From Caecibacter massiliensis (GTDB lineage Bacteria; Bacillota; Negativicutes; Veillonellales; Megasphaeraceae): 64,000 bases of DNA. Made by a program: the position numbers and the translations under genes. The notes beneath the pieces were generated by a model that was not told the DNA's origin, did not search any database, and saw only the letters and a list, made by a program, of their open reading frames with translations. The stretch spans positions 1,116,001 through 1,180,000 of the forward strand of contig LT608311.1 of NCBI GenBank assembly GCA_900095875.1. Reading direction: 5' to 3'. Shown here one piece after another: positions 47,881 to 63,676 of this stretch; the first letter of the stretch is position 1, and each line of letters begins with the position of its first letter.

Positions 47881-49224
47881 TTACCGTTTATTGCTCTTGC
47901 GCCAGATATGCATCTTGTCCGCTTCTTTGATGAGTTCGTCCCGGAAATCGGGGTGTGCCAGGCCGATGAGGGCTTCTGCGCGCTGCCAGGTCGATTTACC
48001 CATGAGGTTGACCATGCCGTATTCTGTCGCAATCCAGTGCGTCTGGGAACGGGGATCGGTGACAGTCGTACCGGCTTTCAGGATGGGGCTGATGTTGGAC
48101 GTAACCGTACCGGTCTTTTTATCCGTATGGGTCGCGTGCATGGCGATGATGGACTTACCGCCTCTGGACCGGTAGGCACCGTCGGTGAAGTCCAGCTGGC
48201 CGCCGCTGCCACTGATCTGGTGGGTCCCCATGGATTCGGCCGATACCTGGCCATAGAGGTCTACTTCAATGCAACTGTTGATGGAAATGAAATTATCAAT
48301 CTGGCCGATGACAGCCGGATCATTTACATAATCGATGGGGAACGTCGCCAAAGCAGGGTTATCATCTACCCAGTCATATAAGTCCTGAGAGCCAAGGGCA
48401 AAGGCAAAGACCCCTTTATCACGGTTCAGGTTTTTGACTTTATTCGTCAGTCTGCCTTCCTTAGCCATAAGGTAAAATGCGTCGACGAGCATTTCTGTAT
48501 GGACGCCCAGATCTTTCAAATCCGATTTGGCAATCATAGCACCTACACTGTTAGGCAGCCCGCCAATGCCCAGCTGCAATGTTGCCCCATCGGGAATGGC
48601 TTCAACGATATAAGAAGCGATTTTCTGATCGATATCGTTTCCAAGGACGAAAGGAATAGTCGGCACTGGCACATCGGGCGCTTCGACGATGGCATCGACG
48701 TCAGAAATATGGATGGCTTCCCCACGGCCGCCAAGACAGCGCGGCATATGCGGATTGACTTCGACGATGACTTTTTTAGCCTTTTTCGTAATAGCCTCGG
48801 TCACGGCCGCACAAAGGCCAAAGTTAAAATAGCCATGTTTATCCATAGGCGCTACAGTAATCATCGCCACATCGACATCAATGATATTGCGGTAAATCGA
48901 CGGTTCATTACGGAAACACATAGGATTAAAAAACATGCGTGACTGTGCTGCCAGCTTGCGGTCATATCCGCTGAGATGCCAGTTCATGACGGTAAAAGTA
49001 TCGCAATCGGGGTCGCATTCGCATACCTGGCGGGGAAACAGGGACATGGTTTCCCGTACTTTAATATCATGTAACTCATCTTTGCGGCCCGCCAGTGCTT
49101 TATCGAGCAGTACCGGCTGGGAAGTCGTCATGCCATAATCGACCCAGTCGCCGTCTTTTACAAGGGTAACTGCTTGTTCCGGAGTCGTCAGTTTTTGTTT
49201 ATACATATCCATCCATTCTGACAT
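47881..49224 (-). CDS. Acyl-CoA:acetate CoA-transferase (acetyl-CoA hydrolase/4-hydroxybutyrate CoA-transferase family)
   Basis: 447-residue class I CoA-transferase. The catalytic Glu is in VDLYGQVSAESMGTHQISGSGGQLDF. GATLQLGIGGLPNSVGAMI and AMHATHTDKKTGTVTSNISPIL follow the butyryl-CoA:acetate and 4-hydroxybutyrate CoA-transferase pattern. It would release butyrate, propionate or another acid while activating acetate. ATG 49224 is chosen because AAAGG lies upstream; the longer frame to 49275 has no such site. A second transferase is encoded directly upstream. Precise acid specificity is not readable. Confidence 0.88.
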   Translation of the reverse strand: MSEWMDMYKQKLTTPEQAVTLVKDGDWVDYGMTTSQPVLLDKALAGRKDELHDIKVRETMSLFPRQVCECDPDCDTFTVMNWHLSGYDRKLAAQSRMFFNPMCFRNEPSIYRNIIDVDVAMITVAPMDKHGYFNFGLCAAVTEAITKKAKKVIVEVNPHMPRCLGGRGEAIHISDVDAIVEAPDVPVPTIPFVLGNDIDQKIASYIVEAIPDGATLQLGIGGLPNSVGAMIAKSDLKDLGVHTEMLVDAFYLMAKEGRLTNKVKNLNRDKGVFAFALGSQDLYDWVDDNPALATFPIDYVNDPAVIGQIDNFISINSCIEVDLYGQVSAESMGTHQISGSGGQLDFTDGAYRSRGGKSIIAMHATHTDKKTGTVTSNISPILKAGTTVTDPRSQTHWIATEYGMVNLMGKSTWQRAEALIGLAHPDFRDELIKEADKMHIWRKSNKR

Positions 49225-49390
49225 TCTGTTCACCAAACCTTTCACAATATATGCGGTCTGTACCGCATCAACCACAACAGAGATATTGTTCTAAAATTCA
49301 CATGTACAGTATAGCTTATTAAAACGTTTTACGCAAGATATCTATGCAAAATCTATATTCATGTTGTGTGTTATACGCAATGCTCGCATA

Positions 49391-50692
49391 TCAGATCAGG
49401 ATATGCATTTTTTTAGCAGCAAAGGTCAGCTCTTCCCGGAATTTCGGATGGGCAATGGAAATCAGGGCTTTTGTCCGCTGAGAAAGGGTTTTCCCCCGTA
49501 ATTTGGCGATGCCGTATTCTGTAACGACGTAATCAATATCATTCTTACTCGTCGAAACGATGGCTCCCGGCGTCAGTGTCGGCACGATTTTGCTGATAGT
49601 GCCTCCTTTTGCCGTAGAGGGGAAAGCAATAAAGCTTTTTCCGCCCGGTGAGCAGATGGCACCGCGCACGTAATCAGCCTGGCCACCTGTACCAGATATA
49701 TGCCGCGTTCCTGTCGATTCAGAGCAGGCCTGACCAAAGAAATCAACTTCAATAGCCGCATTGACAGAAATAAAGTCCGGATGGCGGGCGATGACTGCCG
49801 GGTCATTGACATAATCGACAGGTAACATGAGAAATGCCGGATTGTCATCAATAAAATCGTAAATACGCTGAGAACCAAAGGTCAGGGTTGCCACAGTCTT
49901 TCCCCGGTGAATCGGTTTTCTAGTATTGGTGACAGCCCCGCATTCAATGAGTTCTACCATGCTGTCTGTAAACAGTTCTGTATGGATTCCCAGATCATGC
50001 TTATCCTTGAGGGCCAGACCCACGGCTTCTGGTACAGCGCCGATACCAAGCTGCAGTGTCGCTCCGTCAGGCACTTCTTCGGCAATATAACCGCCGATAG
50101 TACGGCTGATTTCATCAATCTGTACCGGCGGCACGATAGGCAGGGCATGGGACGTTTCACACAGTCCATCGACCTGTGAAATATGGATTTGCGGCGCCGT
50201 GAGTACCCGCGGCAGCTGATCATTGACTTCCAGATAAATATGGCGGGCTTTCCGGATCATGGCAGCACTGCAGGAACCGCTCAGGCTGGTGCTGAAATAC
50301 CCGTGCTTATCCATAGGAGATACCTGGGCAAAGAACGCATCAATGTCGATATATCGTTCAAACAGTCCCGGCGCATCGTGGTAATAGCAGGGCATGATGT
50401 CGCAGCGTCCTTCGTTGGCAGCTTTGCGCAGTCCCCCGCCGGAAAACCATGTAACAGGCGTAATATTCGGATAGGCTTCAGAAGATAACGTCCCCAGAGG
50501 CGTCACATCGAGCAGAGTATGACAGGTCACATCCTGTATATCCCCGGCAGCGGCCCGTTTTCCCAGAGCATCGGCCAGGACCGGCGGGATGGCTCCTGAA
50601 ATATCAGCACAACAGGACCAGCCCGATTCCACACAGGCGGCAATCTGTTCCGGCGTTTTTTTCTTATCGGCATATTCTTGCATTACATCCAT
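49391..50692 (-). CDS. Second CoA-transferase of the acetyl-CoA hydrolase family
   Basis: 433-residue paralogue of the downstream CoA-transferase. The catalytic Glu is in VDFFGQACSESTGTRHISGTGGQADY. GATLQLGIGAVPEAVGLAL and TEYGIAKLRGKTLSQRTKALI are typical. ATG 50692 has AAAGGAG 8 bases upstream. It is more divergent in its first 100 residues (ADISGAIPPVLADALGKR, DVTPLGTLSSEAY), so it may use another acid than its neighbour. The 166-base gap to the next gene has no clear terminator, so the two may be co-transcribed. Confidence 0.87.
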   Translation of the reverse strand: MDVMQEYADKKKTPEQIAACVESGWSCCADISGAIPPVLADALGKRAAAGDIQDVTCHTLLDVTPLGTLSSEAYPNITPVTWFSGGGLRKAANEGRCDIMPCYYHDAPGLFERYIDIDAFFAQVSPMDKHGYFSTSLSGSCSAAMIRKARHIYLEVNDQLPRVLTAPQIHISQVDGLCETSHALPIVPPVQIDEISRTIGGYIAEEVPDGATLQLGIGAVPEAVGLALKDKHDLGIHTELFTDSMVELIECGAVTNTRKPIHRGKTVATLTFGSQRIYDFIDDNPAFLMLPVDYVNDPAVIARHPDFISVNAAIEVDFFGQACSESTGTRHISGTGGQADYVRGAICSPGGKSFIAFPSTAKGGTISKIVPTLTPGAIVSTSKNDIDYVVTEYGIAKLRGKTLSQRTKALISIAHPKFREELTFAAKKMHILI

Positions 50693-50751
50693 GATAATTT
50701 CTCCTTTCACTAAAAAATCAGCATTGCTATGATTTCACTACCCAAAAGAAA

Positions 50752-55710: not shown

Positions 55711-56622
55711 TTATTCAGAAGAAGTCCGTTCTTTCAACGCTTCATAAAATTGCTTTGACAAGGGAATGTCTATTCCCAGTTTCTCTGCTGTCTTTACGAG
55801 ATAGCCACTGAACGTTTCCAGTTCATTGGGCCGGCGGGCCATGACATCGTGGGCAAGGGAGCTGGTTACATTCTGATTTTTCTGGCCTATGACGCGATGA
55901 TAAATCGTATCGACCAGGTCATCGGCCAGATCAACTCCCTGAGCCTTCCCAATCGTATAGGCCTCATGGAGAAGGGTATGGAATTCCTCTTTTCCCTGCG
56001 GACGGGCAAATACACCGGCAAAGGTATCTTCATAATAAGCCGTAATCACGTTAATGGCGCAGTTGGTGATGAATTTATTCCACACTTCGACGCGGATATC
56101 GTCGGCATATCGTATTTTCAACCCCGGATGATCGAGAAGATCATGGAGAGTTGTACTGTATTCCCCTTCAGCACTGCTGATATACATGCGGGCAAAGGCC
56201 CCGGACTGACGGATTGAAAAATCGGCCTGGGCTTCTGTATTAATGTAAATAGTCGAATCCATAATTTTTCCCTTCGGCAGAATAGACCGGGCTACCTCAC
56301 TATGATCGACGCCGTTCTGCATGCAGACAATCATCGTATGATCATCTACGCAGGGGATCACGGCCTGTAATGCTGCCGGTAGGGAATAATTCTTGACGCA
56401 GACAAAAATCACATCCTGAATGCCGCACGACGACGGGTCATCGGTTACTTTCGGATGAGCTACGTGTTCACCAAAAAAATCACTGTGCAGAATAAGACCT
56501 TTTTCTATGAGAGATTCTTTCCGCTTGCGGCGGGCAATCAGAGTCACATCATCATAGTAGGCACACAAAAAAGATGCCATATATCCACCGATACCGCCAA
56601 TTCCCGTTACCATGATTTTCAT
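55711..56622 (-). CDS. panE: Ketopantoate reductase family protein (ApbA/PanE)
   Basis: 303-residue NADPH-dependent reductase. The nucleotide motif is VTGIGGIGGYMASFL; FVCVKNYSLPAALQAVIP, CMQNGVDHSEVARSILP and the C-terminal SLAHDVMARRPNELETFSGYLVK are family features, including the conserved Lys and Glu. The usual role is ketopantoate to pantoate in CoA synthesis. However, its position behind the dehydratase-aldolase operon also allows a role in reducing a branched 2-oxo acid. GAGGGAG precedes the ATG. A terminator separates it from the upstream rraA-like gene. Confidence 0.85.
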   Translation of the reverse strand: MKIMVTGIGGIGGYMASFLCAYYDDVTLIARRKRKESLIEKGLILHSDFFGEHVAHPKVTDDPSSCGIQDVIFVCVKNYSLPAALQAVIPCVDDHTMIVCMQNGVDHSEVARSILPKGKIMDSTIYINTEAQADFSIRQSGAFARMYISSAEGEYSTTLHDLLDHPGLKIRYADDIRVEVWNKFITNCAINVITAYYEDTFAGVFARPQGKEEFHTLLHEAYTIGKAQGVDLADDLVDTIYHRVIGQKNQNVTSSLAHDVMARRPNELETFSGYLVKTAEKLGIDIPLSKQFYEALKERTSSE

Positions 56623-56650
56623 GAGTCATCACTCCCTCAACATATAAATC

Positions 56651-56703
56651 AAAAGACTGTTTTTACCATTTTAGCATAATAAATCGGTAAAAACAGTCTT
56701 TTT
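56651..56703 (-). terminator. Terminator of the dehydratase-aldolase operon
   Basis: AAAAGACTGTTTTTACC pairs with GGTAAAAACAGTCTTTT, an almost perfect 17-base stem with an 18-base loop, 12 bases beyond the rraA-like stop. Confidence 0.88.
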
Positions 56704-56714
56704 CGTCTCTATAC

Positions 56715-57335
56715 TTACCTTTCTCCACAGGCTTTAGCAAGAAATTCATCTAGTGCGGCCGGATCAGGAATAACAGTATCCATCTTCCAACGGTCTTTTT
56801 CTTCTTTAGCCTTTGCGTTTTTCAGGACTTCTGCCGTTTTATCGGCAGGAATGACGACGACGCCATCAGCATCGCCATAAATAATGTCTCCGGGACGGAT
56901 AAGCGTATCGGCACAGGCAACTGTCTGTTGTACTCGTCCCAGATAATTGACAGGGGGACTTTTCGGCGTAATACCGCGGGCAAAAACAGGAAAATCACCA
57001 CTGGCAATGGCCTGACTATCACGAACGCATCCATCAATGACGATACCTGCCAGGCCCTGCTTTCTGGCAATAGTCACGACAATTTCTCCCAGGAACGCTG
57101 CATCGGTTGTTCCATGGGCAGCGATGACAAGGACAGCGCCTTTGGGAGCTTCCCGCAATGCTTTAAATACAACAGAACAATCATTTTTAACGACTTGTAT
57201 GGTGTAAGCCGGTCCTGTAACGGTCATCCGTTTATCCAGTGGTTTAATAGCAGCAGCCATCGTCTGGCATCCTGCCATGGCATCTGATAACGATGTAGAT
57301 GACACGCCATTCCATTCTTGTATATTAAATTCCAT
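56715..57335 (-). CDS. RraA-like aldolase / oxaloacetate decarboxylase family protein
   Basis: 206-residue RraA/HMG-aldolase fold protein. LSDAMAGCQTM at the start and GIVIDGCVRDSQAI carry the conserved G-x3-DG-x-RD pattern that binds Mg2+ and the oxo acid in 4-hydroxy-4-methyl-2-oxoglutarate aldolases. GDIIYGDADGVVVIPADK is the second signature. Such enzymes split 2-oxo-4-hydroxy acids to pyruvate, or decarboxylate oxaloacetate. It overlaps the 3' end of the LeuC-like gene by 11 bases, so it should act on a product of that dehydratase pathway. Bacterial RNase E inhibition by RraA is an unlikely role here. Confidence 0.86.
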   Translation of the reverse strand: MEFNIQEWNGVSSTSLSDAMAGCQTMAAAIKPLDKRMTVTGPAYTIQVVKNDCSVVFKALREAPKGAVLVIAAHGTTDAAFLGEIVVTIARKQGLAGIVIDGCVRDSQAIASGDFPVFARGITPKSPPVNYLGRVQQTVACADTLIRPGDIIYGDADGVVVIPADKTAEVLKNAKAKEEKDRWKMDTVIPDPAALDEFLAKACGER

Positions 57336-58599
57336 AATTTCTCTCCTGTTTCAAATCAGCGGGATGTATTAAATGACCAGCAACAGCCGTGGCAGCCGCT
57401 ACAACTGGTGAACCCAGGTATGTTTTGGACTTCGGGCTGCCCAGACGGCCCAGGAAATTCCGGTTATTCGTTCCAAGTAATACTTCATCATCAGACAATA
57501 ACCCGCCACTTCTGCCTTCACAGAGCGAGCAATAGGGATGAGTAACCATAGCTCCAGCCTGAATAAATGTTTGTATGTATCCCAGAGCAATGGCCTGTTT
57601 AAAAATGGACCGCGATGCCGGTGTGATAAGCAGTTCCATGTGGGGAGCAATGTGCCGCCCTTCCAGTACGCGGGCGGCAGCTGCCAGATCCTGCAGCCTT
57701 CCATTCGTACAGGAACCGATGAATACTTTATCTACTTTCATTCCTTCCAGTTCGGACAGCGGTTTGACATTATCTACGTACGGATGGGCCGCAATATACG
57801 GTACCATATCTTCGGCTTTATACGTCAGCACTTTTTCGTACTCTGCATCGTCATCAAAATGGAGCCACGATACGTCATCATATTTTACGTTGCTGTAAGC
57901 GCAACTTTCTTTTGTCGGTGCGAACAGTCCGACTTTGGCACCGCATTCGACGGCCATATTGGCAATGGTCAGCCGTTCGTCAACGGGCATGGCATCGATG
58001 GTAGAGCCACAGAATTCCAGGGATTTATAGGTGCCGCCGGCAGCTTTCAGATCTCCCAGGATGCGCAGGGCGATGTCTTTGGAGCAGACTCCGTCCGGCA
58101 GTGTGCCGTCTATCTGGATTTTAATGGCTGACGGTACGCGGACCCACATTTCTCCTGTACCCAGGACGGCCGCCATTTCCGTGTAGCCGATGCCCGTAGA
58201 AAAAGCGCTGACAGCACCGTAGGTTGTCGTATGGGAATCAGTGACAAATACGACGTCACCGGGCCGGGCATATCCCAGTTCCGGCATGAGCTGATGGCAG
58301 ATGCCGTCGCCGGCATGGACTTTACGGGCGCCGAATTCTTCGGCAAACTGATATCCGTATTTCAGGTGATCCCCATCGAGAGGAAGGCAGGTCGGAAGCA
58401 GATGGTCAAACATGATGATGACTTTTTCCGGATCCCAGGATTTCGTAAATCCCATTTCCTTGAATTTCCGGTATACATTTGTCGTATAGATATCGTGAAA
58501 CATGACGCAGTCCGGATGAGTGATGACGATGTCACCGGGTCTGCAGTCTGCTACGCCTGTATTATGCATCAGAATTTTTTCTGCTAATGTATGTCCCAT
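57325..58599 (-). CDS. LeuC-like aconitase-family dehydratase large subunit
   Basis: 424-residue 4Fe-4S hydro-lyase. Cluster cysteines lie in VFIGSCTNGRLQDL and HPYCSLCEGRSGG; VFVTDSHTTTYGAVSAFSTGIG is the substrate-loop signature. It resembles 3-isopropylmalate dehydratase and 2,3-dimethylmalate/homoaconitate enzymes, but the HPYCSLCEG motif replaces the usual NPGCGPC. It therefore probably isomerises or dehydrates a 2-hydroxydicarboxylate other than isopropylmalate. It is encoded with a transporter for 2-hydroxycarboxylates, a small subunit and an aldolase. GGAAGGAG precedes the ATG. Confidence 0.88.
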   Translation of the reverse strand: MGHTLAEKILMHNTGVADCRPGDIVITHPDCVMFHDIYTTNVYRKFKEMGFTKSWDPEKVIIMFDHLLPTCLPLDGDHLKYGYQFAEEFGARKVHAGDGICHQLMPELGYARPGDVVFVTDSHTTTYGAVSAFSTGIGYTEMAAVLGTGEMWVRVPSAIKIQIDGTLPDGVCSKDIALRILGDLKAAGGTYKSLEFCGSTIDAMPVDERLTIANMAVECGAKVGLFAPTKESCAYSNVKYDDVSWLHFDDDAEYEKVLTYKAEDMVPYIAAHPYVDNVKPLSELEGMKVDKVFIGSCTNGRLQDLAAAARVLEGRHIAPHMELLITPASRSIFKQAIALGYIQTFIQAGAMVTHPYCSLCEGRSGGLLSDDEVLLGTNNRNFLGRLGSPKSKTYLGSPVVAAATAVAGHLIHPADLKQERNYGI

Positions 58600-58619
58600 G
58601 ATAGCAGTCTCCTTCCGTA

Positions 58620-59906
58620 CTATAAGACAAAGGATAAAATAACACTGCCTGCAATCAATACGAGGGCACCGCCCAGACGGGATGAAACGGCAGCAAAAGG
58701 CATGAGTTCCATTCTTTTGCAGGCACCAAGTGTAGCAATGTCACCGGAACCGCCCATATTCGCCATACAGAGGCCGGCTGTAATAGCGGCTTCGATGGGA
58801 TAGAACCCGACAAACCAGCCGACAACAGCTGCTCCGACGATGGCACCTAATACGACTGCGGCTACAATGATTACATAACTGGGCGTCAAAGCAGGAATGA
58901 CGGCACTCAGGCTGATCAGACCAAAGCCCAGCCCGGCCAGAAGGGTATTGGTGAAATTTTTGATGAAGAACTGGAACCAAAGAGCGCAATATCGTTCAAT
59001 GTTAGCTGGCAATATTCCCAGAACTTTAACAACAATCATTAACAGAATCATCCAGGCATAGGCATGAATACTCGGAATGAACCGTTGAATCAACATACCC
59101 AGAGCTAGGAAAATACCGGCAAAAGTCATACCGACGGCAAAGACAGATAAATTCGTTACTGGTTCCTCTTTTTTTGCTTCTTCGGATTCTGCCTGTTTTC
59201 CTTCGTCACGCATAATATGACCGTTTCCCGTCATCCAGGGATGTATTTTTCCAAGACGGTCCAGAAGCCCTGCTGCAATGATGGCAAACGCATTCCCCAA
59301 TGCTACAGCCGGCGTCATCAGGGCTAATAATTCACCTACATCGCGCTGCATGATTTCACCAAACATCTGGGAAAGTGGAACGGCACCAGCCGATGTCCCT
59401 CCTCCCATGATGGGGACGGAAATAAACAATGTCGTTTCTGAAAAAATATTTCCAAAGAGAAGTCCCGCTGCACCGCCAAAAAGGATGGCCAGGATAAAGC
59501 CACCTATGATACAGGGTAAATACCGGATAGCAGCTCTGATAAGCAATTTGCGGTCCATACCAAAAATACTGCCGCAGCAGAGAGCTGCCAATGCAAAATT
59601 AATAAAAGTCCCGGTCATAAACGTTTTGCAGGTTTTGGCAAAATCATCCGGCACCAATCCATACATCACCATAGCTGATGTACCAAATAATACAACAATG
59701 GATCCGCCGCCCAGATAATCTTTGACGATAGGAATGCGGTCGCCAATGAACCGGAATGCTTCACCGTATACGATGAGCAATGGCAATACACCGGCCAGAC
59801 TTCCCGGTAGAAATTTAAAGAAAAGGGCCAGATTGAGAATAACAAAAGCTAGTATGAAATAAGGCCAGTCCATATTCAAAATCTGCAGTCTTTTTGTCGT
59901 TTCCAT
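58620..59906 (-). CDS. 2-hydroxycarboxylate transporter (2-HCT family)
   Basis: 428-residue secondary transporter of the CitS/MleP group with about 11 hydrophobic helices. Both reentrant-loop signatures are visible: VPIMGGGTSAGAVPLSQMF and ANMGGSGDIATLGACKRMELMPFAAVSSRLGGALV, with the substrate-binding Arg in SSRLG. It exchanges or imports citrate, malate, citramalate or related 2-hydroxy acids. Its position between two dehydratase large-subunit genes strongly suggests it brings in their substrate. AAAGGAGAG precedes the ATG. Confidence 0.9.
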   Translation of the reverse strand: METTKRLQILNMDWPYFILAFVILNLALFFKFLPGSLAGVLPLLIVYGEAFRFIGDRIPIVKDYLGGGSIVVLFGTSAMVMYGLVPDDFAKTCKTFMTGTFINFALAALCCGSIFGMDRKLLIRAAIRYLPCIIGGFILAILFGGAAGLLFGNIFSETTLFISVPIMGGGTSAGAVPLSQMFGEIMQRDVGELLALMTPAVALGNAFAIIAAGLLDRLGKIHPWMTGNGHIMRDEGKQAESEEAKKEEPVTNLSVFAVGMTFAGIFLALGMLIQRFIPSIHAYAWMILLMIVVKVLGILPANIERYCALWFQFFIKNFTNTLLAGLGFGLISLSAVIPALTPSYVIIVAAVVLGAIVGAAVVGWFVGFYPIEAAITAGLCMANMGGSGDIATLGACKRMELMPFAAVSSRLGGALVLIAGSVILSFVL

Positions 59907-59922
59907 ATGTGTCTCTCCTTTC

Positions 59923-60423
59923 TTACCCCTTTATGATTCCATTGCGTTTCTGCATACTTTTGACAAGGCCGCCGTCTTCAATAATCTGAAAAATATTATC
60001 CGGTATGTGGGGAATATCATATTTCTTCCCATGACAAGACACGTACCGGTTTATTTCTACGGTTACGACATCACCCTCAACGACATGATCTGCCAATTCA
60101 TTGCATTCAATCAATAAGAGTCCGTTATTAATAGCATTACGGAAAAATATCCGGGCAAACGATTTTGCAATAATACAGCGGATTTTCAATGCACTCAACG
60201 CTTCCGGAGCCTGTTCCCTGGAAGATCCACAGCCGAAATTATGTCCTGCCACGATAATATCTCCTGGTCTTATCGCAGCTGCCAGTTCCGGCCGCAGTGG
60301 TTCAAAGGCGTGTTTTTTGACTTCGTCCATCGTATCCAGTGTCAGCCACTGGGTCGGCATGATGATATCCGTATCAATATCATCTCCTAACTTCCATATT
60401 CGTCCTTCAAAACGCATTTCCAT
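59923..60423 (-). CDS. LeuD-like aconitase-family dehydratase small subunit
   Basis: 166-residue swivel-domain subunit: WKLGDDIDTDIIMPTQW at the start, GDIIVAGHNFGCGSSREQAPEAL (the conserved GSSREQ loop) and KSFARIFFRNAINNGLLLIEC. It forms the substrate-binding half of a heterodimeric hydro-lyase with a large subunit. Two candidate large subunits are encoded in this operon, so the true partner is uncertain; both might share it. ATG 60423 has AGGAGG 9 bases upstream, excluding the longer frame to 60456. Confidence 0.9.
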   Translation of the reverse strand: MEMRFEGRIWKLGDDIDTDIIMPTQWLTLDTMDEVKKHAFEPLRPELAAAIRPGDIIVAGHNFGCGSSREQAPEALSALKIRCIIAKSFARIFFRNAINNGLLLIECNELADHVVEGDVVTVEINRYVSCHGKKYDIPHIPDNIFQIIEDGGLVKSMQKRNGIIKG

Positions 60424-60436
60424 ATGCAAACACCTC

Positions 60437-61576
60437 CTATTCCTGCAGAATGCCACTCAGGGCGCACCTGGCTGCCACCTGCGGTGACGTCAGATAGACC
60501 TTTGCCGATACATCCCCGGAGCAGCCGGGATAGTGATAGGATCCCGTAGAAACCAGGGTCTCACCCGCGTCAAGTATTCCCTGCGCCCGGCCCCAGCAGA
60601 CACTGCACCCCTGATTCATGACGATGGCACCGGAATCCAGGAAAATATCAATCAGACCCTCCTGCAAAGCCTGCAGGTACACAGTACTCGTTGCAGGCGC
60701 GACAATCAGGCGCAGACGATAAGCAATCCGTTTCCCCTGGAGAACAGAGGCAGCAGCTCGTAAATCGGATAATTTACCGCCACGACAGCCGCCAATAAAT
60801 ACCTCTTGCACAGGAACAGGTACCTGTTCCTGCAGGGGGACGATATGAGTCTGATTTCCCGGTTGAACGGCAAGAGGGCATACATCCGATACATCGAACG
60901 TCATAGAAGGAGCTTGTTCTGTATCCATGATTATGGCACTGATTCCCCCGGCCTGCTGCAGAAGATGGCAGAAATCATAACACTGATCTTGTGAAAAAAC
61001 CGCCATATCCTTCTTTGCAAAAAGGAATAGATCTCCTGTCCTGCCACTCTGTTTCAACATTTTCAGCAATGCCAGTGCCGCATCCTGTGCAGATACAGTT
61101 TCAGCCATGCTGCCTCGTATGGCAATACGCTGTATAGGTGGACAGGTAAGCTGTAAGGGCCCACCCGATACGACAGAAGGCAATACTTCTTCCGAAACAG
61201 TAATTCCCAGGGCCCCTGCCGATCCCAGGCCGGCCATATGACTCCCAGTACCAGCAACAATCTGTCCTTCTTGTACATATTTTTCTATTAAACGAATATA
61301 CCCGATGCCCTGGCACGATTCTATAGCCAACTCTTTTTCTACAGCCCAGCGAATCAGCCGGCGCTGTCTGGCACCTATATCGATGGAGCTATTAGGCGTA
61401 TCATGGTCAATACAAACAATGATTTTCTCACTCTGAATCGTCGGTTCTGACAGAATGGCATCTATCGTTTTGTCACTCAGTGCGTCTGTCACCATGATGT
61501 AATCAGGCCAGATAGAACAAACAGACCGGGTATTCTGTAAAAGCTGTCGTATCTGCATTTTATCCATAGGTTCCAT
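60437..61576 (-). CDS. Divergent, shortened aconitase-family large subunit
   Basis: 379 residues, about 40 shorter than a normal LeuC. Cluster cysteines seem kept: VFIGGCRGGKLSDLRAAASVL (normally GSCTNGR) and IVMNQGCSVCWGRAQG (normally NPGCGPCLG). The loop normally reading DSHT is GTGSHMAGLGSAGALGI, so a substrate-binding Asp/Thr is lost. The N-terminal 90 residues are poorly conserved. It may be a distinct hydro-lyase or a non-catalytic partner of the small subunit encoded directly after it. An AAAGGA site precedes ATG 61576; ATG 61567 is an alternative start. It heads the five-gene operon. Confidence 0.8.
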   Translation of the reverse strand: MEPMDKMQIRQLLQNTRSVCSIWPDYIMVTDALSDKTIDAILSEPTIQSEKIIVCIDHDTPNSSIDIGARQRRLIRWAVEKELAIESCQGIGYIRLIEKYVQEGQIVAGTGSHMAGLGSAGALGITVSEEVLPSVVSGGPLQLTCPPIQRIAIRGSMAETVSAQDAALALLKMLKQSGRTGDLFLFAKKDMAVFSQDQCYDFCHLLQQAGGISAIIMDTEQAPSMTFDVSDVCPLAVQPGNQTHIVPLQEQVPVPVQEVFIGGCRGGKLSDLRAAASVLQGKRIAYRLRLIVAPATSTVYLQALQEGLIDIFLDSGAIVMNQGCSVCWGRAQGILDAGETLVSTGSYHYPGCSGDVSAKVYLTSPQVAARCALSGILQE

Positions 61577-61795: not shown

Positions 61796-63676
61796 ATGTC
61801 ATTTTCAGCTGATACCCGTTCCTTCCGTATCTGTGTACTGGCCTACAGCCGTATTCTTCACATAGTCCATGATGTCATTCGCCAGTTACCTGACACAGGA
61901 GTCGAATATATCGTCATTGAAGCCGGCCTGGCCGATCAGGATGCCTGCGTCACCAGAGCAATCCGTCAGGGATGTGAAATATTTGTAGCTGGTCCCGCCG
62001 GAGCAACACTATTTGCCAACCACTACAGTTACCCCGTCATTCCCTTTCAGGTTCAGGATATAGATTATCTCCGGGCCATCCGCACAGCGCTGGATCAGGG
62101 ATACCAGCACATTGGCATCATGCGTTACCGTCACGCAGCCCCTCTGCATCTGGATGTATTTCAGCAATTGATGAAGATCCGTCTTACAGAACTCGTTTAC
62201 GATGCGATTCCACAGATTTATTCCATCGCCAGAAAAACGCAATGCGATATACTGATTGGTCCGGCAGCTGCTCAGGACGCAGCCGATGCAGCCGGCAAAG
62301 CATCACTCCTCGTCTATGCAGGAAGAGAAGCCATCCGCGATGCCTGTCTGGCTGCTGGTGAACAGATAAAAAGAATCTATGCAGCACGGCGCCATCGTGT
62401 CATTACTGAATCGTTACTGGGAACAACCCAGCTTGGTATCGTCATTATTAATACAGAACAGGTCATCGAATTTTTTAATCGTACCATGCAGAATTATACA
62501 GGACTGACATTGCATCAGGTCAGTGGCCGGACATTGACAGAGATATTTCCCAACCTGCCTTTGGATACATTTCTGAAAAGCGGACTCAGCCAGAAAGATA
62601 GTTACCACGTAATCAATGGTACCATGATGCGCTGTGTCTTCAGCCGCATCACAATTGGTTTTCACGCTGGTGGCGTTCTCCTCACGTTTCATCCCACCCC
62701 GCACAACACAAAAAAAGACCGGAAGCAACAGCGGTATACTATTGCCCCGGTTTATAAACTGGAAAAAATCACCGCGTATTCACCTGTTATGAGTCATCTT
62801 GTACAGCTTTGCCGTCATATTTCTCCCATCGAATACGCCACCACTCTTATCGGTCCTGCCGGCTGTGGTGGTGAAGAGCTGGCTCATTGCCTGCACAATG
62901 CATCCCGCCGTTCGGGCAATCCCTGTATGACACTGGATTGTTCTTCTACAACAGACGAACAGGCCGTTTCCACCCTTTACGGACGTACACAGAACGGATA
63001 CACACGCAGCGGTCTCTTTTTTCATGCCGCCGGTGGCAGTATCATTATCATTCATCCCGGTCTGGCCGGTCCGCGACTCCTGGCTATCCTGCAGGAAGTT
63101 CTGACAAAACAGCAATACATCTCCCCGGAAAACGGAGAACCCGTAGTGCTGGATATTTTATTTTATACAGTAGCCACCGATCAGGAATACCGGCAGCTGC
63201 CTATAGGGCTGCGCCGGCTTCTGTCTATTCATTGTCTGACATTGCCGCCACTCCGGGACCGGCCGGAAGATATCTGTGAGCTCTTTGTGAACTACGTCCA
63301 TCAACAGCTGCCGCAAAAACGGCATACTCATCTCAGTGAACATATGACACAACTGCTTACCACATACAGCTGGCCCGGCAATATCATTGAACTGCGCAGC
63401 GTCAGTATCCGCTATGCCCTGCAGCTAAAAACAGCAGCCAGTCCAACCCTGCGTTACCGCTATCAGCTTCTGATGGAAGCCATCGGTGAAAACAATGTAA
63501 AAGAAGATCTATATCTCCAATATCCGGCACTGATGGAAACACCTGTCACCGATTTGAAAAACTTCCGTGCCGGTATTCAAAAGCTCCATTCCCTGTTCGG
63601 CTGTACGTATAAAGAAATCGCTGAAAAACTGAATATGAGCCGTACGACATTATGGCGCCTGCTCCATAGTACCTGA
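61796..63676 (+). CDS. PrpR-like regulator with degenerate AAA+ domain
   Basis: 626-residue regulator on plus. Residues about 10-200 are a PrpR-N type sensor (GCEIFVAGPAGATLFANHYSYPVIPFQV, GYQHIGIMRY). Residues about 205-290 are a PAS domain (LGTTQLGIVIINTEQVIEFFN). A sigma-54 AAA+ module follows, and a Fis-type helix-turn-helix ends it (CTYKEIAEKLNMSRTTLWRLL). The AAA+ module is eroded: Walker A is GPAGCGGEE instead of GETGTGKE, the GAFTGA loop is missing (GRTQNGYTRSGLFFHAAGG) and Walker B DE is replaced by HPG (SIIIIHPG). It retains LPPLRDRPEDI and YSWPGNIIELRS. It therefore probably works without sigma-54, like TyrR. GAAAGGAG precedes the ATG. Confidence 0.87.
   Translation: MSFSADTRSFRICVLAYSRILHIVHDVIRQLPDTGVEYIVIEAGLADQDACVTRAIRQGCEIFVAGPAGATLFANHYSYPVIPFQVQDIDYLRAIRTALDQGYQHIGIMRYRHAAPLHLDVFQQLMKIRLTELVYDAIPQIYSIARKTQCDILIGPAAAQDAADAAGKASLLVYAGREAIRDACLAAGEQIKRIYAARRHRVITESLLGTTQLGIVIINTEQVIEFFNRTMQNYTGLTLHQVSGRTLTEIFPNLPLDTFLKSGLSQKDSYHVINGTMMRCVFSRITIGFHAGGVLLTFHPTPHNTKKDRKQQRYTIAPVYKLEKITAYSPVMSHLVQLCRHISPIEYATTLIGPAGCGGEELAHCLHNASRRSGNPCMTLDCSSTTDEQAVSTLYGRTQNGYTRSGLFFHAAGGSIIIIHPGLAGPRLLAILQEVLTKQQYISPENGEPVVLDILFYTVATDQEYRQLPIGLRRLLSIHCLTLPPLRDRPEDICELFVNYVHQQLPQKRHTHLSEHMTQLLTTYSWPGNIIELRSVSIRYALQLKTAASPTLRYRYQLLMEAIGENNVKEDLYLQYPALMETPVTDLKNFRAGIQKLHSLFGCTYKEIAEKLNMSRTTLWRLLHST

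What the first reader, a model, noticed from the sequence alone, without database searches (positions are those of the whole stretch)
56715..61576. Five-gene operon for an undescribed 2-hydroxy-acid breakdown pathway
One transcription unit encodes two different aconitase-type large subunits, one small subunit, a 2-hydroxycarboxylate transporter and an RraA-type aldolase, closed by a strong terminator. A ketopantoate-reductase family gene follows. Leucine biosynthesis would not need a 2-HCT transporter or an aldolase. The logic fits uptake of a 2-hydroxy(di)carboxylate, isomerisation or dehydration-hydration to a 4-hydroxy-2-oxo type intermediate, and aldol cleavage to pyruvate. I know of no described pathway with this exact set.
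Basis: partly seen in the sequence, partly recalled or inferred. Interest (0 to 1): 0.75.

Follow-up and report, generated by a model that had tools for sequence, protein, structure and literature searches.

The report
Acid-fermenting operon with dead aconitase subunit
A bacterium carries a small set of genes that probably takes up and ferments an organic hydroxy acid, and one of its two aconitase-like proteins has lost residues needed for catalysis yet is kept in related bacteria, which hints at a new kind of partner subunit in this enzyme family.

Summary
The five-gene operon is real: L1 (short aconitase-type large subunit), S (small subunit), 2HCT transporter, L2 (canonical large subunit), RraA, then a hairpin. 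Leucine genes lie elsewhere. L1-S-L2 was read at 13 loci (Negativicutes and the Oscillibacter family), each with a transporter (2HCT 8, MatC 3, KdgT 2) and a lyase/decarboxylase (RraA 5, OadA-like protein plus CMD 7, LeuB 1), often with PFOR and Ptb/Buk or a CoA-transferase.

All 13 L1 have lost Asp165, His147 and Arg452 of the aconitase active site, and 5 lost all three Fe-S cysteines, while 34 of 34 other large subunits compared keep all eleven positions. L1 lies next to the L1' of complete tandem pairs (S1-L1'-S2-L2') in the tree and co-varies with L2: it looks like a pseudoenzyme subunit.

Beta-decarboxylation of an oxaloacetate-type intermediate fits the enzyme swaps best, but aldol cleavage stays open: the closest RraA relatives lie in an aldolase-like setting. 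A CitF-type citrate-lyase route is excluded in this genome. The substrate is unproven.

The parts
60437..61576 (-). L1: divergent, catalytically degenerate aconitase-type large subunit (379 aa); Fe-S cysteines and Ser166/His167 kept here, Asp165/His147/Arg447/Arg452 lost
   Evidence: PF00330, residue table, AlphaFold model mean pLDDT 86.2 and PDB matches to homoaconitase/IPMI large subunits, TMq 0.84-0.85
59923..60423 (-). S: LeuD/DmdB-type small subunit, with the GSSRE motif
   Evidence: TIGR02087 179.2 bits, cut-off 108.95; alignment
58620..59906 (-). 2-hydroxycarboxylate transporter (2HCT)
   Evidence: PF03390 459.5 bits; below the citrate-symporter cut-offs
57325..58599 (-). L2: canonical IPMI/homoaconitase-type large subunit with intact active site
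   Evidence: NF001614 488.6 bits, cut-off 385; residue table
56715..57335 (-). RraA-family protein (class II aldolase/oxaloacetate-decarboxylase type) with a DGxxRD motif (motif recalled)
   Evidence: PF03737; best PDB match 3noj, CHA aldolase/OAA decarboxylase
56640..56715 (-). terminator-like 18-pair hairpin
   Evidence: z -7.5
61796..63676 (+). divergent regulator: PrpR_N domain, sigma-54 activator AAA domain, C-terminal HTH-like match just under its cut-off
   Evidence: PF06506, PF00158, PF08281 25.3 vs 25.7; no good -24/-12 site in the 219-nt intergenic region
55711..56622 (-). PanE/ApbA-family dehydrogenase after the terminator; membership in the unit doubtful
   Evidence: PF02558, PF08546; not seen at the other 12 L1 loci

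Best explanation
A catabolic operon for an imported 2-hydroxy-dicarboxylate. One hydro-lyase, L2 with S, does the aconitase-type chemistry (dehydration, with or without rehydration). L1 is a retained pseudoenzyme large subunit that sits in the same complex as a structural or regulatory partner. The product is an oxaloacetate-type beta-oxo acid, made directly if the substrate is a 2,3-dihydroxy acid such as a tartrate. RraA then removes the beta-carboxylate to give pyruvate or a homologue. A 2-oxoacid:ferredoxin oxidoreductase makes acyl-CoA, which yields the acid and ATP. Shown: gene set, conservation, loss of L1 catalytic residues, L1/L2 co-variation. Inferred: complex formation, the oxaloacetate-type intermediate, the later steps in the window organism, the substrate.
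For: L1, S and L2 are together at 13 of 13 L1 loci read, with a carboxylate or sugar-acid transporter at each (2HCT 8, MatC 3, KdgT 2). The lyase is RraA at 5, OadA-like + CMD at 7, LeuB at 1. The OadA-like protein has Glu where biotin-dependent relatives have the carbamylated Lys (12 of 12 sequences; the Lys is recalled), which suggests that it works without biotin. PFOR adjoins 8 of 13 and a Vor-type oxidoreductase lies near 2; Ptb/Buk adjoin 6 and a CoA-transferase 2. No gene labelled as a dehydrogenase belongs to the module at 12 of 13. A relative of this RraA (39% identity) lies in G094 with two aconitase-type genes, CitF and a HpcH/HpaI-citrate-lyase-family gene, where oxaloacetate decarboxylation would suit it. 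L1: 13 of 13 lost D165, H147 and R452; 5 of 13 lost all cluster Cys; 34 of 34 other large subunits keep all eleven positions. L1 and L2 distances correlate, r 0.88, 0 of 5000 permutations as high. Tree: L1 beside L1', L2 with L2'.
Against: No substrate or activity data. S and L2 distances correlate as well (r 0.90), so shared descent of the operon may explain the L1/L2 figure. The two closest RraA relatives outside L1 loci (40% and 39%, G013 and G009) lie with a PrpF-family gene, an amino-acid permease, a second RraA, an aminotransferase and a carbon-nitrogen hydrolase, which suits aldol cleavage of an amino-acid-derived 4-hydroxy-2-oxo acid. In G142 and in the G094 cluster RraA adjoins a D-2-hydroxyacid dehydrogenase, which would fit reduction of an aldol product. 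G651 has LeuB in the locus, which implies isomerisation plus oxidation. The window operon itself holds no PFOR, Ptb/Buk or CoA-transferase. Known tartrate dehydratases are not LeuCD-type (recalled). Unlabelled ORFs around the modules were not all scanned.
Confidence: 0.42

Rival explanations
1. One reading: hydration or isomerisation to a 4-hydroxy-2-oxo acid (CHA/HMG type), then RraA aldol cleavage to pyruvate plus a second oxo acid or aldehyde.
For: RraA's best solved relative is the CHA aldolase/OAA decarboxylase 3noj. CHA is a citrate analogue, which suits an aconitase-type hydratase (inference). The closest RraA relatives, in G013 and G009, lie with PrpF, permease, aminotransferase and carbon-nitrogen hydrolase genes. 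A D-2-hydroxyacid dehydrogenase adjoins L-S-RraA in G142.
Against: RraA is below the cut-offs of both CHA-aldolase equivalogs (117 vs 179; 109 vs 304.5). It is replaced by an OadA-type protein and by LeuB at 8 of 13 loci. No genes for making an oxo acid upstream were labelled.
Confidence: 0.25
2. Alkylmalate route: a citramalate-like acid is isomerised by S with L2 to the 3-alkylmalate, oxidised by a dehydrogenase encoded elsewhere (or the PanE-like one here), beta-decarboxylated by RraA to a 2-oxo acid, then oxidised to propionyl-CoA or a homologue.
For: L2 has the full isomerase active site. G651 carries a second, locus-bound LeuB besides another LeuB. G199's second locus has a Vor-type oxidoreductase with Ptb/Buk. 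PanE lies next to the window operon.
Against: No labelled dehydrogenase in 12 of 13 modules; PanE not conserved; LeuB would decarboxylate by itself and make RraA/OadA superfluous.
Confidence: 0.2
3. L1 is an active enzyme with new chemistry, its Arg452-to-Cys giving a fully cysteine-ligated cluster (a rival for the L1 part only).
For: Cys at the Arg452 position in 10 of 13 L1, in 7 of the 8 with the triad.
Against: Five L1 lost the whole triad, three of them keeping that Cys; only 22 columns are invariant in the 9-row alignment and I recognised no new catalytic set among them.
Confidence: 0.08
4. Trans-aconitate or citrate fermentation through citrate lyase, as in Acidaminococcus fermentans.
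For: Aconitase-type genes, citrate-type transporters, oxaloacetate decarboxylation and PFOR are in that pathway (PMC3035267, passages).
Against: CitF (PF04223) was not found in G000 (100% complete) and G001 (99%). Three of the Acidaminococcus-genus genomes have a separate PrpF-like/YbhJ-like/MatC/OadA-like operon.
Confidence: 0.05

Closest known systems
Isopropylmalate/citramalate isomerase and homoaconitase (archaeal-type LeuCD/HacAB; PDB 4kp1, 4nqy, 4kp2)
   Same: L2+S: same family, split large/small subunits, all eleven compared active-site positions kept in L2
   Different: Below the LeuC equivalog cut-off; S has WLT where the LeuD of the same genome has YLN (that this loop sets specificity is recalled); coupled to a second, degenerate large subunit L1
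Maleate hydratase, dimethylmaleate hydratase DmdAB, (R)-2-methylmalate dehydratase (recalled)
   Same: Catabolic LeuCD-type hydro-lyases on small dicarboxylates
   Different: No pseudo large subunit known to me; different neighbours
HMG/CHA aldolase-oxaloacetate decarboxylase (3noj; LigK/GalC)
   Same: RraA family, DGxxRD motif, possible oxaloacetate decarboxylase activity
   Different: No gallate or protocatechuate pathway genes noticed nearby; scores below the equivalog cut-offs
Citrate fermentation clusters (CitS, citrate lyase, oxaloacetate decarboxylase; recalled)
   Same: 2HCT transporter and a beta-decarboxylation logic
   Different: No CitF found in this genome; aconitase-type enzyme instead
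Trans-aconitate fermentation of Acidaminococcus fermentans (PMC3035267, passages)
   Same: Oxaloacetate and pyruvate as intermediates; an OadA-like homologue in a candidate operon of related genomes
   Different: Other aconitase type, PrpF-like isomerase, MatC transporter, goes through citrate

Membership tests
Archaeal-type IPMI/homoaconitase (L2+S) | Subfamily HMM scores over the curated cut-off | tested here: met
   L2 NF001614 488.6>385, TIGR02086 465>410.15; S TIGR02087 179.2>108.95
Archaeal-type IPMI/homoaconitase (L2+S) | Catalytic and cluster residues | tested here: met
   11 of 11 positions in L2
Archaeal-type IPMI/homoaconitase (L2+S) | Isomerase activity | not testable with these tools
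   needs assay
Leucine-biosynthesis LeuC | Equivalog score and leu gene context | tested here: not met
   TIGR02083 395.2<610.65; leu locus elsewhere
Catalytic aconitase-type large subunit (L1) | Asp165, His147, Arg447, Arg452 | tested here: not met
   All four lost in the window's L1; D165, H147 and R452 lost in 13 of 13, R447 in 12 of 13
Catalytic aconitase-type large subunit (L1) | Fold | tested here: met
   AlphaFold model, TMq 0.84-0.85 to 4kp2/4kp1
2HCT transporter | PF03390 | tested here: met
   459.5 bits; CitS equivalog 361.4<600 and ccs 393.8<549.05 not reached
CHA aldolase/oxaloacetate decarboxylase (RraA type) | Equivalog score | tested here: not met
   PRK09262 117.1<179, TIGR02798 108.8<304.5
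CHA aldolase/oxaloacetate decarboxylase (RraA type) | Activity | not testable with these tools
   needs assay
Citrate-lyase-based citrate/aconitate fermentation | Citrate lyase alpha subunit (CitF) in the genome | tested here: not met
   No PF04223 match in G000 or G001
Classical TtdAB-type tartrate fermentation | Class I fumarase/TtdB-type domain (PF05683) in the genome | tested here: not met
   None in G000, G001, G008, G155, G151; present in 7 of 12 genomes searched

The most novel reading that the evidence does not exclude
A three-part hydro-lyase (active L2, shared S, pseudoenzyme L1), derived from two complete tandem isomerases by loss of one small subunit and decay of one large subunit, opens a previously undescribed dehydrogenase-free fermentation of a dihydroxy-dicarboxylate through an oxaloacetate-type intermediate in anaerobes of the Negativicutes and Oscillospiraceae.
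Probability: 0.37. Interest if true: 0.72.

Novelty: new variant of a known kind. Interest (0 to 1): 0.55.

Why it matters
A conserved catalytically dead large subunit has not, to my knowledge, been described in the aconitase/IPMI family (searches showed none). The series of an intact tandem pair, a shared small subunit with a cluster-bearing L1, and a cluster-less L1 is a ready-made case of pseudoenzyme evolution that co-purification can test. The module also predicts an unannotated acid-fermentation capacity in anaerobes (named records: Acidaminococcus, Oscillibacter, Sporomusaceae) whose genes would be easy to misname leuC/leuD.

Tried and rejected
Leucine biosynthesis: rejected, separate leu locus. 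CitF-type citrate lyase route: rejected for this genome. Na+-pumping oxaloacetate decarboxylase: OAD beta not found in G000, G001, G008 (78% complete) and G651, present in the other 9 of 13. A sigma-54 -24/-12 site in the intergenic region: only a 4-match candidate. TtdAB in the same operon context was not met; PF05683 is absent from the window genome, which neither proves nor excludes tartrate. Papers on YbhD/YbhH and trans-aconitate (PMC9068703, PMC11495376, passages) gave analogies only; the aconitase X paper (PMC8184944) was seen in passages for active-site numbering. Searches returned no paper.

Rows dropped: L1 of G001 (apparent frameshift, 329-aa open part) left out of the tree, and G001 out of the rate comparison (12 loci); it is in the residue table with two gaps. 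L2' of G123 and the cut L2' of G816 left out. Profile A1 was built from 9 of the 13 L1. Tandem loci were read in 8 of the 12 genomes whose scores pointed to them. Many neighbour labels rest on phmmer against reference proteins from these loci; some genes without a label were named by eye. While holding the report against the calls I found that Ptb/Buk also adjoin in G144, that the residue table has 34, not 33, other rows, and that the G013/G009 setting of RraA had been left out; the last moved the odds of aldol cleavage from 0.20 to 0.25, of my reading from 0.45 to 0.42, of the alkylmalate route from 0.22 to 0.20 and of the novel case from 0.40 to 0.37.
Full report
What is there. Five genes on the - strand from 61576 to 56715 form one unit: L1, S, a 2HCT transporter, L2 and RraA, tightly spaced and followed by an 18-pair AT-rich hairpin (z -7.5). 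A divergent PrpR_N/sigma-54-type regulator starts at 61796 and a PanE-family gene follows the hairpin. The window genome (G000, 100% complete) has leuB, leuD and leuC at C2 about 23.7-26.6 kb and a separate 783-aa aconitase next to an isocitrate-dehydrogenase-type gene and what by eye is a citrate synthase. The operon is not the leucine locus.

Conservation. The one scan of genome contigs found three relatives of L1: Acidaminococcus (L008), Oscillibacter (L009) and a Sporomusaceae MAG (L010). A profile from 9 L1 was run on 380 genomes of the class. The two ranges touch: G001 scores 347 because its L1 is partial, and was assigned by gene order and by its 50% identity to the window's L1. Of 300 genomes drawn from the Oscillibacter genome's family, two hold L1 and one the tandem type; of 398 genomes drawn from the phylum, one tandem type besides the window. 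The module is rare and patchy.

Neighbourhoods. Thirteen L1 loci were read: window, G001, L008, L009, L010, L090 (second locus of G199), G094, G008, G052, G144, G105, G154, G651. S and L2 are beside L1 in all (the transporter lies between S and L2 in the window and L008), and S and L2 are fused in six. Transporter: 2HCT at 8, MatC at 3, KdgT at 2. Lyase: RraA at 5, OadA-like with a CMD-family partner at 7 (G052 has an RraA next door as well), LeuB at 1. PFOR adjoins 8, a Vor-type 2-oxoacid oxidoreductase lies near 2 (in G651 about 5 kb away), and three (window, G001, L008) have neither in the module. Ptb/Buk adjoin 6 and a butyryl-CoA:acetate CoA-transferase-like gene 2. Labels come from phmmer against proteins of these loci, with Pfam/NCBIfam scans of representatives.

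L1 is degenerate. Positions were mapped by motif onto aconitase: Cys358/421/424 and Asp165, His167, His147 around the fourth iron (PMC8184944, passages); Asp100, His101, Ser166, Arg447 and Arg452 recalled. Of 47 large subunits compared, all 13 L1 have lost Asp165, His147 and Arg452, 12 of 13 Arg447, 12 of 13 Ser166, and 5 of 13 (G052, G144, G105, G154, G651) all three cluster cysteines; His167 is kept in 12 and Asp100/His101 in the 12 that cover them. The other 34 rows (8 L1', 13 L2, 6 L2', 7 others) keep all eleven positions. L1 is still predicted to fold as a homoaconitase/IPMI large subunit (mean pLDDT 86.2; TMq 0.84 to 4kp2, 0.85 to 4kp1).

Origin of L1. Eight tandem loci were read: S1-L1'-S2-L2', two complete enzymes in seven, the eighth cut by the contig end. 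In a tree of 46 rows L1 is one group (100/100) next to L1', and L2 joins L2' (100/99); the root is a midpoint only, so this is adjacency, not direction. L1 and L2 show the same split of six and six loci (G001 aside). Their distances correlate (r 0.88; 0 of 5000 permutations as high; S with L2 0.90) and L1 changes about 1.9 times as fast by log identity. The five cluster-less L1 form one group (100/99). The simplest account is a pair of isomerases of which one lost its small subunit and catalysis but stayed as a partner.

What the pathway does. RraA, the OadA-like protein and LeuB occupy the same place. RraA- and OadA-type enzymes can remove a beta-carboxylate from oxaloacetate-type acids, and LeuB also ends in beta-decarboxylation (family knowledge). 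The OadA-like protein carries Glu in place of the biotin-type lysine in 12 of 12 sequences. Related OadA-like genes lie with PrpF/4-oxalomesaconate-tautomerase-like and YbhJ-like genes in four genomes (G154, G105, G156, G174), in three also with MatC and a beta-propeller lactonase-like gene; A. [quoted passage not shown] An RraA 39% identical to the window's lies in G094 with two aconitase-type genes, a D-2-hydroxyacid dehydrogenase, a HpcH/HpaI-citrate-lyase-family gene and CitF. These settings favour oxaloacetate-type decarboxylation. As no CitF was found in G000 and G001 and no labelled dehydrogenase belongs to 12 of 13 modules, direct dehydration of a dihydroxy acid (tartrate-like) to a keto acid is the most economical proposal. 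It remains inference.

Against my reading. The two closest RraA relatives outside L1 loci, in two genomes of the window's genus (G013 40%, G009 39%), lie with a PrpF-family gene, an amino-acid permease, a second RraA, an aminotransferase and a carbon-nitrogen hydrolase (Pfam on G013's genes); this suits aldol cleavage of an amino-acid-derived 4-hydroxy-2-oxo acid. In G142 an L-S-RraA set carries a D-2-hydroxyacid dehydrogenase and TctA. G651's second LeuB points to alkylmalate isomerisation there. There is no activity datum, and shared operon descent could explain the L1/L2 correlation.

Novelty. The paper searches (open PMC papers; listings, with passages of four papers read) showed no description of this operon or of a dead aconitase-type large subunit. 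Subscription journals were not searched.

Noticed in passing
window 47881-49275 and 49391-50710 (-): Two adjacent butyryl-CoA:acetate CoA-transferase-like genes (573 and 326 bits, both under the equivalog cut-off) about 6 kb from RraA; a similar gene lies inside the L009 and L010 modules.
   Followed up: partly
L051, L093, L094, L095, L096, L098, L104, L105: Tandem S1-L1'-S2-L2' loci, six of eight with a divergent LysR gene: two LeuCD-type isomerases side by side, function unknown.
   Followed up: partly
L117, L118, L119, L121: PrpF/4-oxalomesaconate-tautomerase-like, YbhJ-like hydratase and OadA-like genes, in three of four also MatC and a beta-propeller lactonase-like gene; a candidate trans-aconitate operon and a cue for E. 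coli ybhHIJ.
   Followed up: partly
L103:124-10897: L1/S-L2 locus of G651 with a second leuB, a 645-aa aconitase, MatC and a nickel-dependent malate-racemase-like gene nearby.
   Followed up: partly
L143:3847-10772 and L144: LysR, PrpF-family gene, amino-acid permease, two RraA genes, aminotransferase and carbon-nitrogen hydrolase in two genomes of the window's genus: possible catabolism of a substituted glutamate/glutamine through an HMG-type aldolase.
   Followed up: partly
L041:10131-11300: L1 of G001 appears split by a frameshift in the assembly.
   Followed up: no
L008:10944-12749: L2 and RraA read as one 601-aa frame, the end of L2 being replaced; real fusion or assembly error.
   Followed up: no
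L120: Ordinary L+S pair without L1 in the same setting (OadA-like, CMD, MatC, LysR, RraA).
   Followed up: partly
L146, L147: PrpR-like regulator followed by L and RraA without L1: separate S in L146, with D-2-hydroxyacid dehydrogenase and TctA genes; in L147 a 369-aa frame that may be S fused to RraA.
   Followed up: partly
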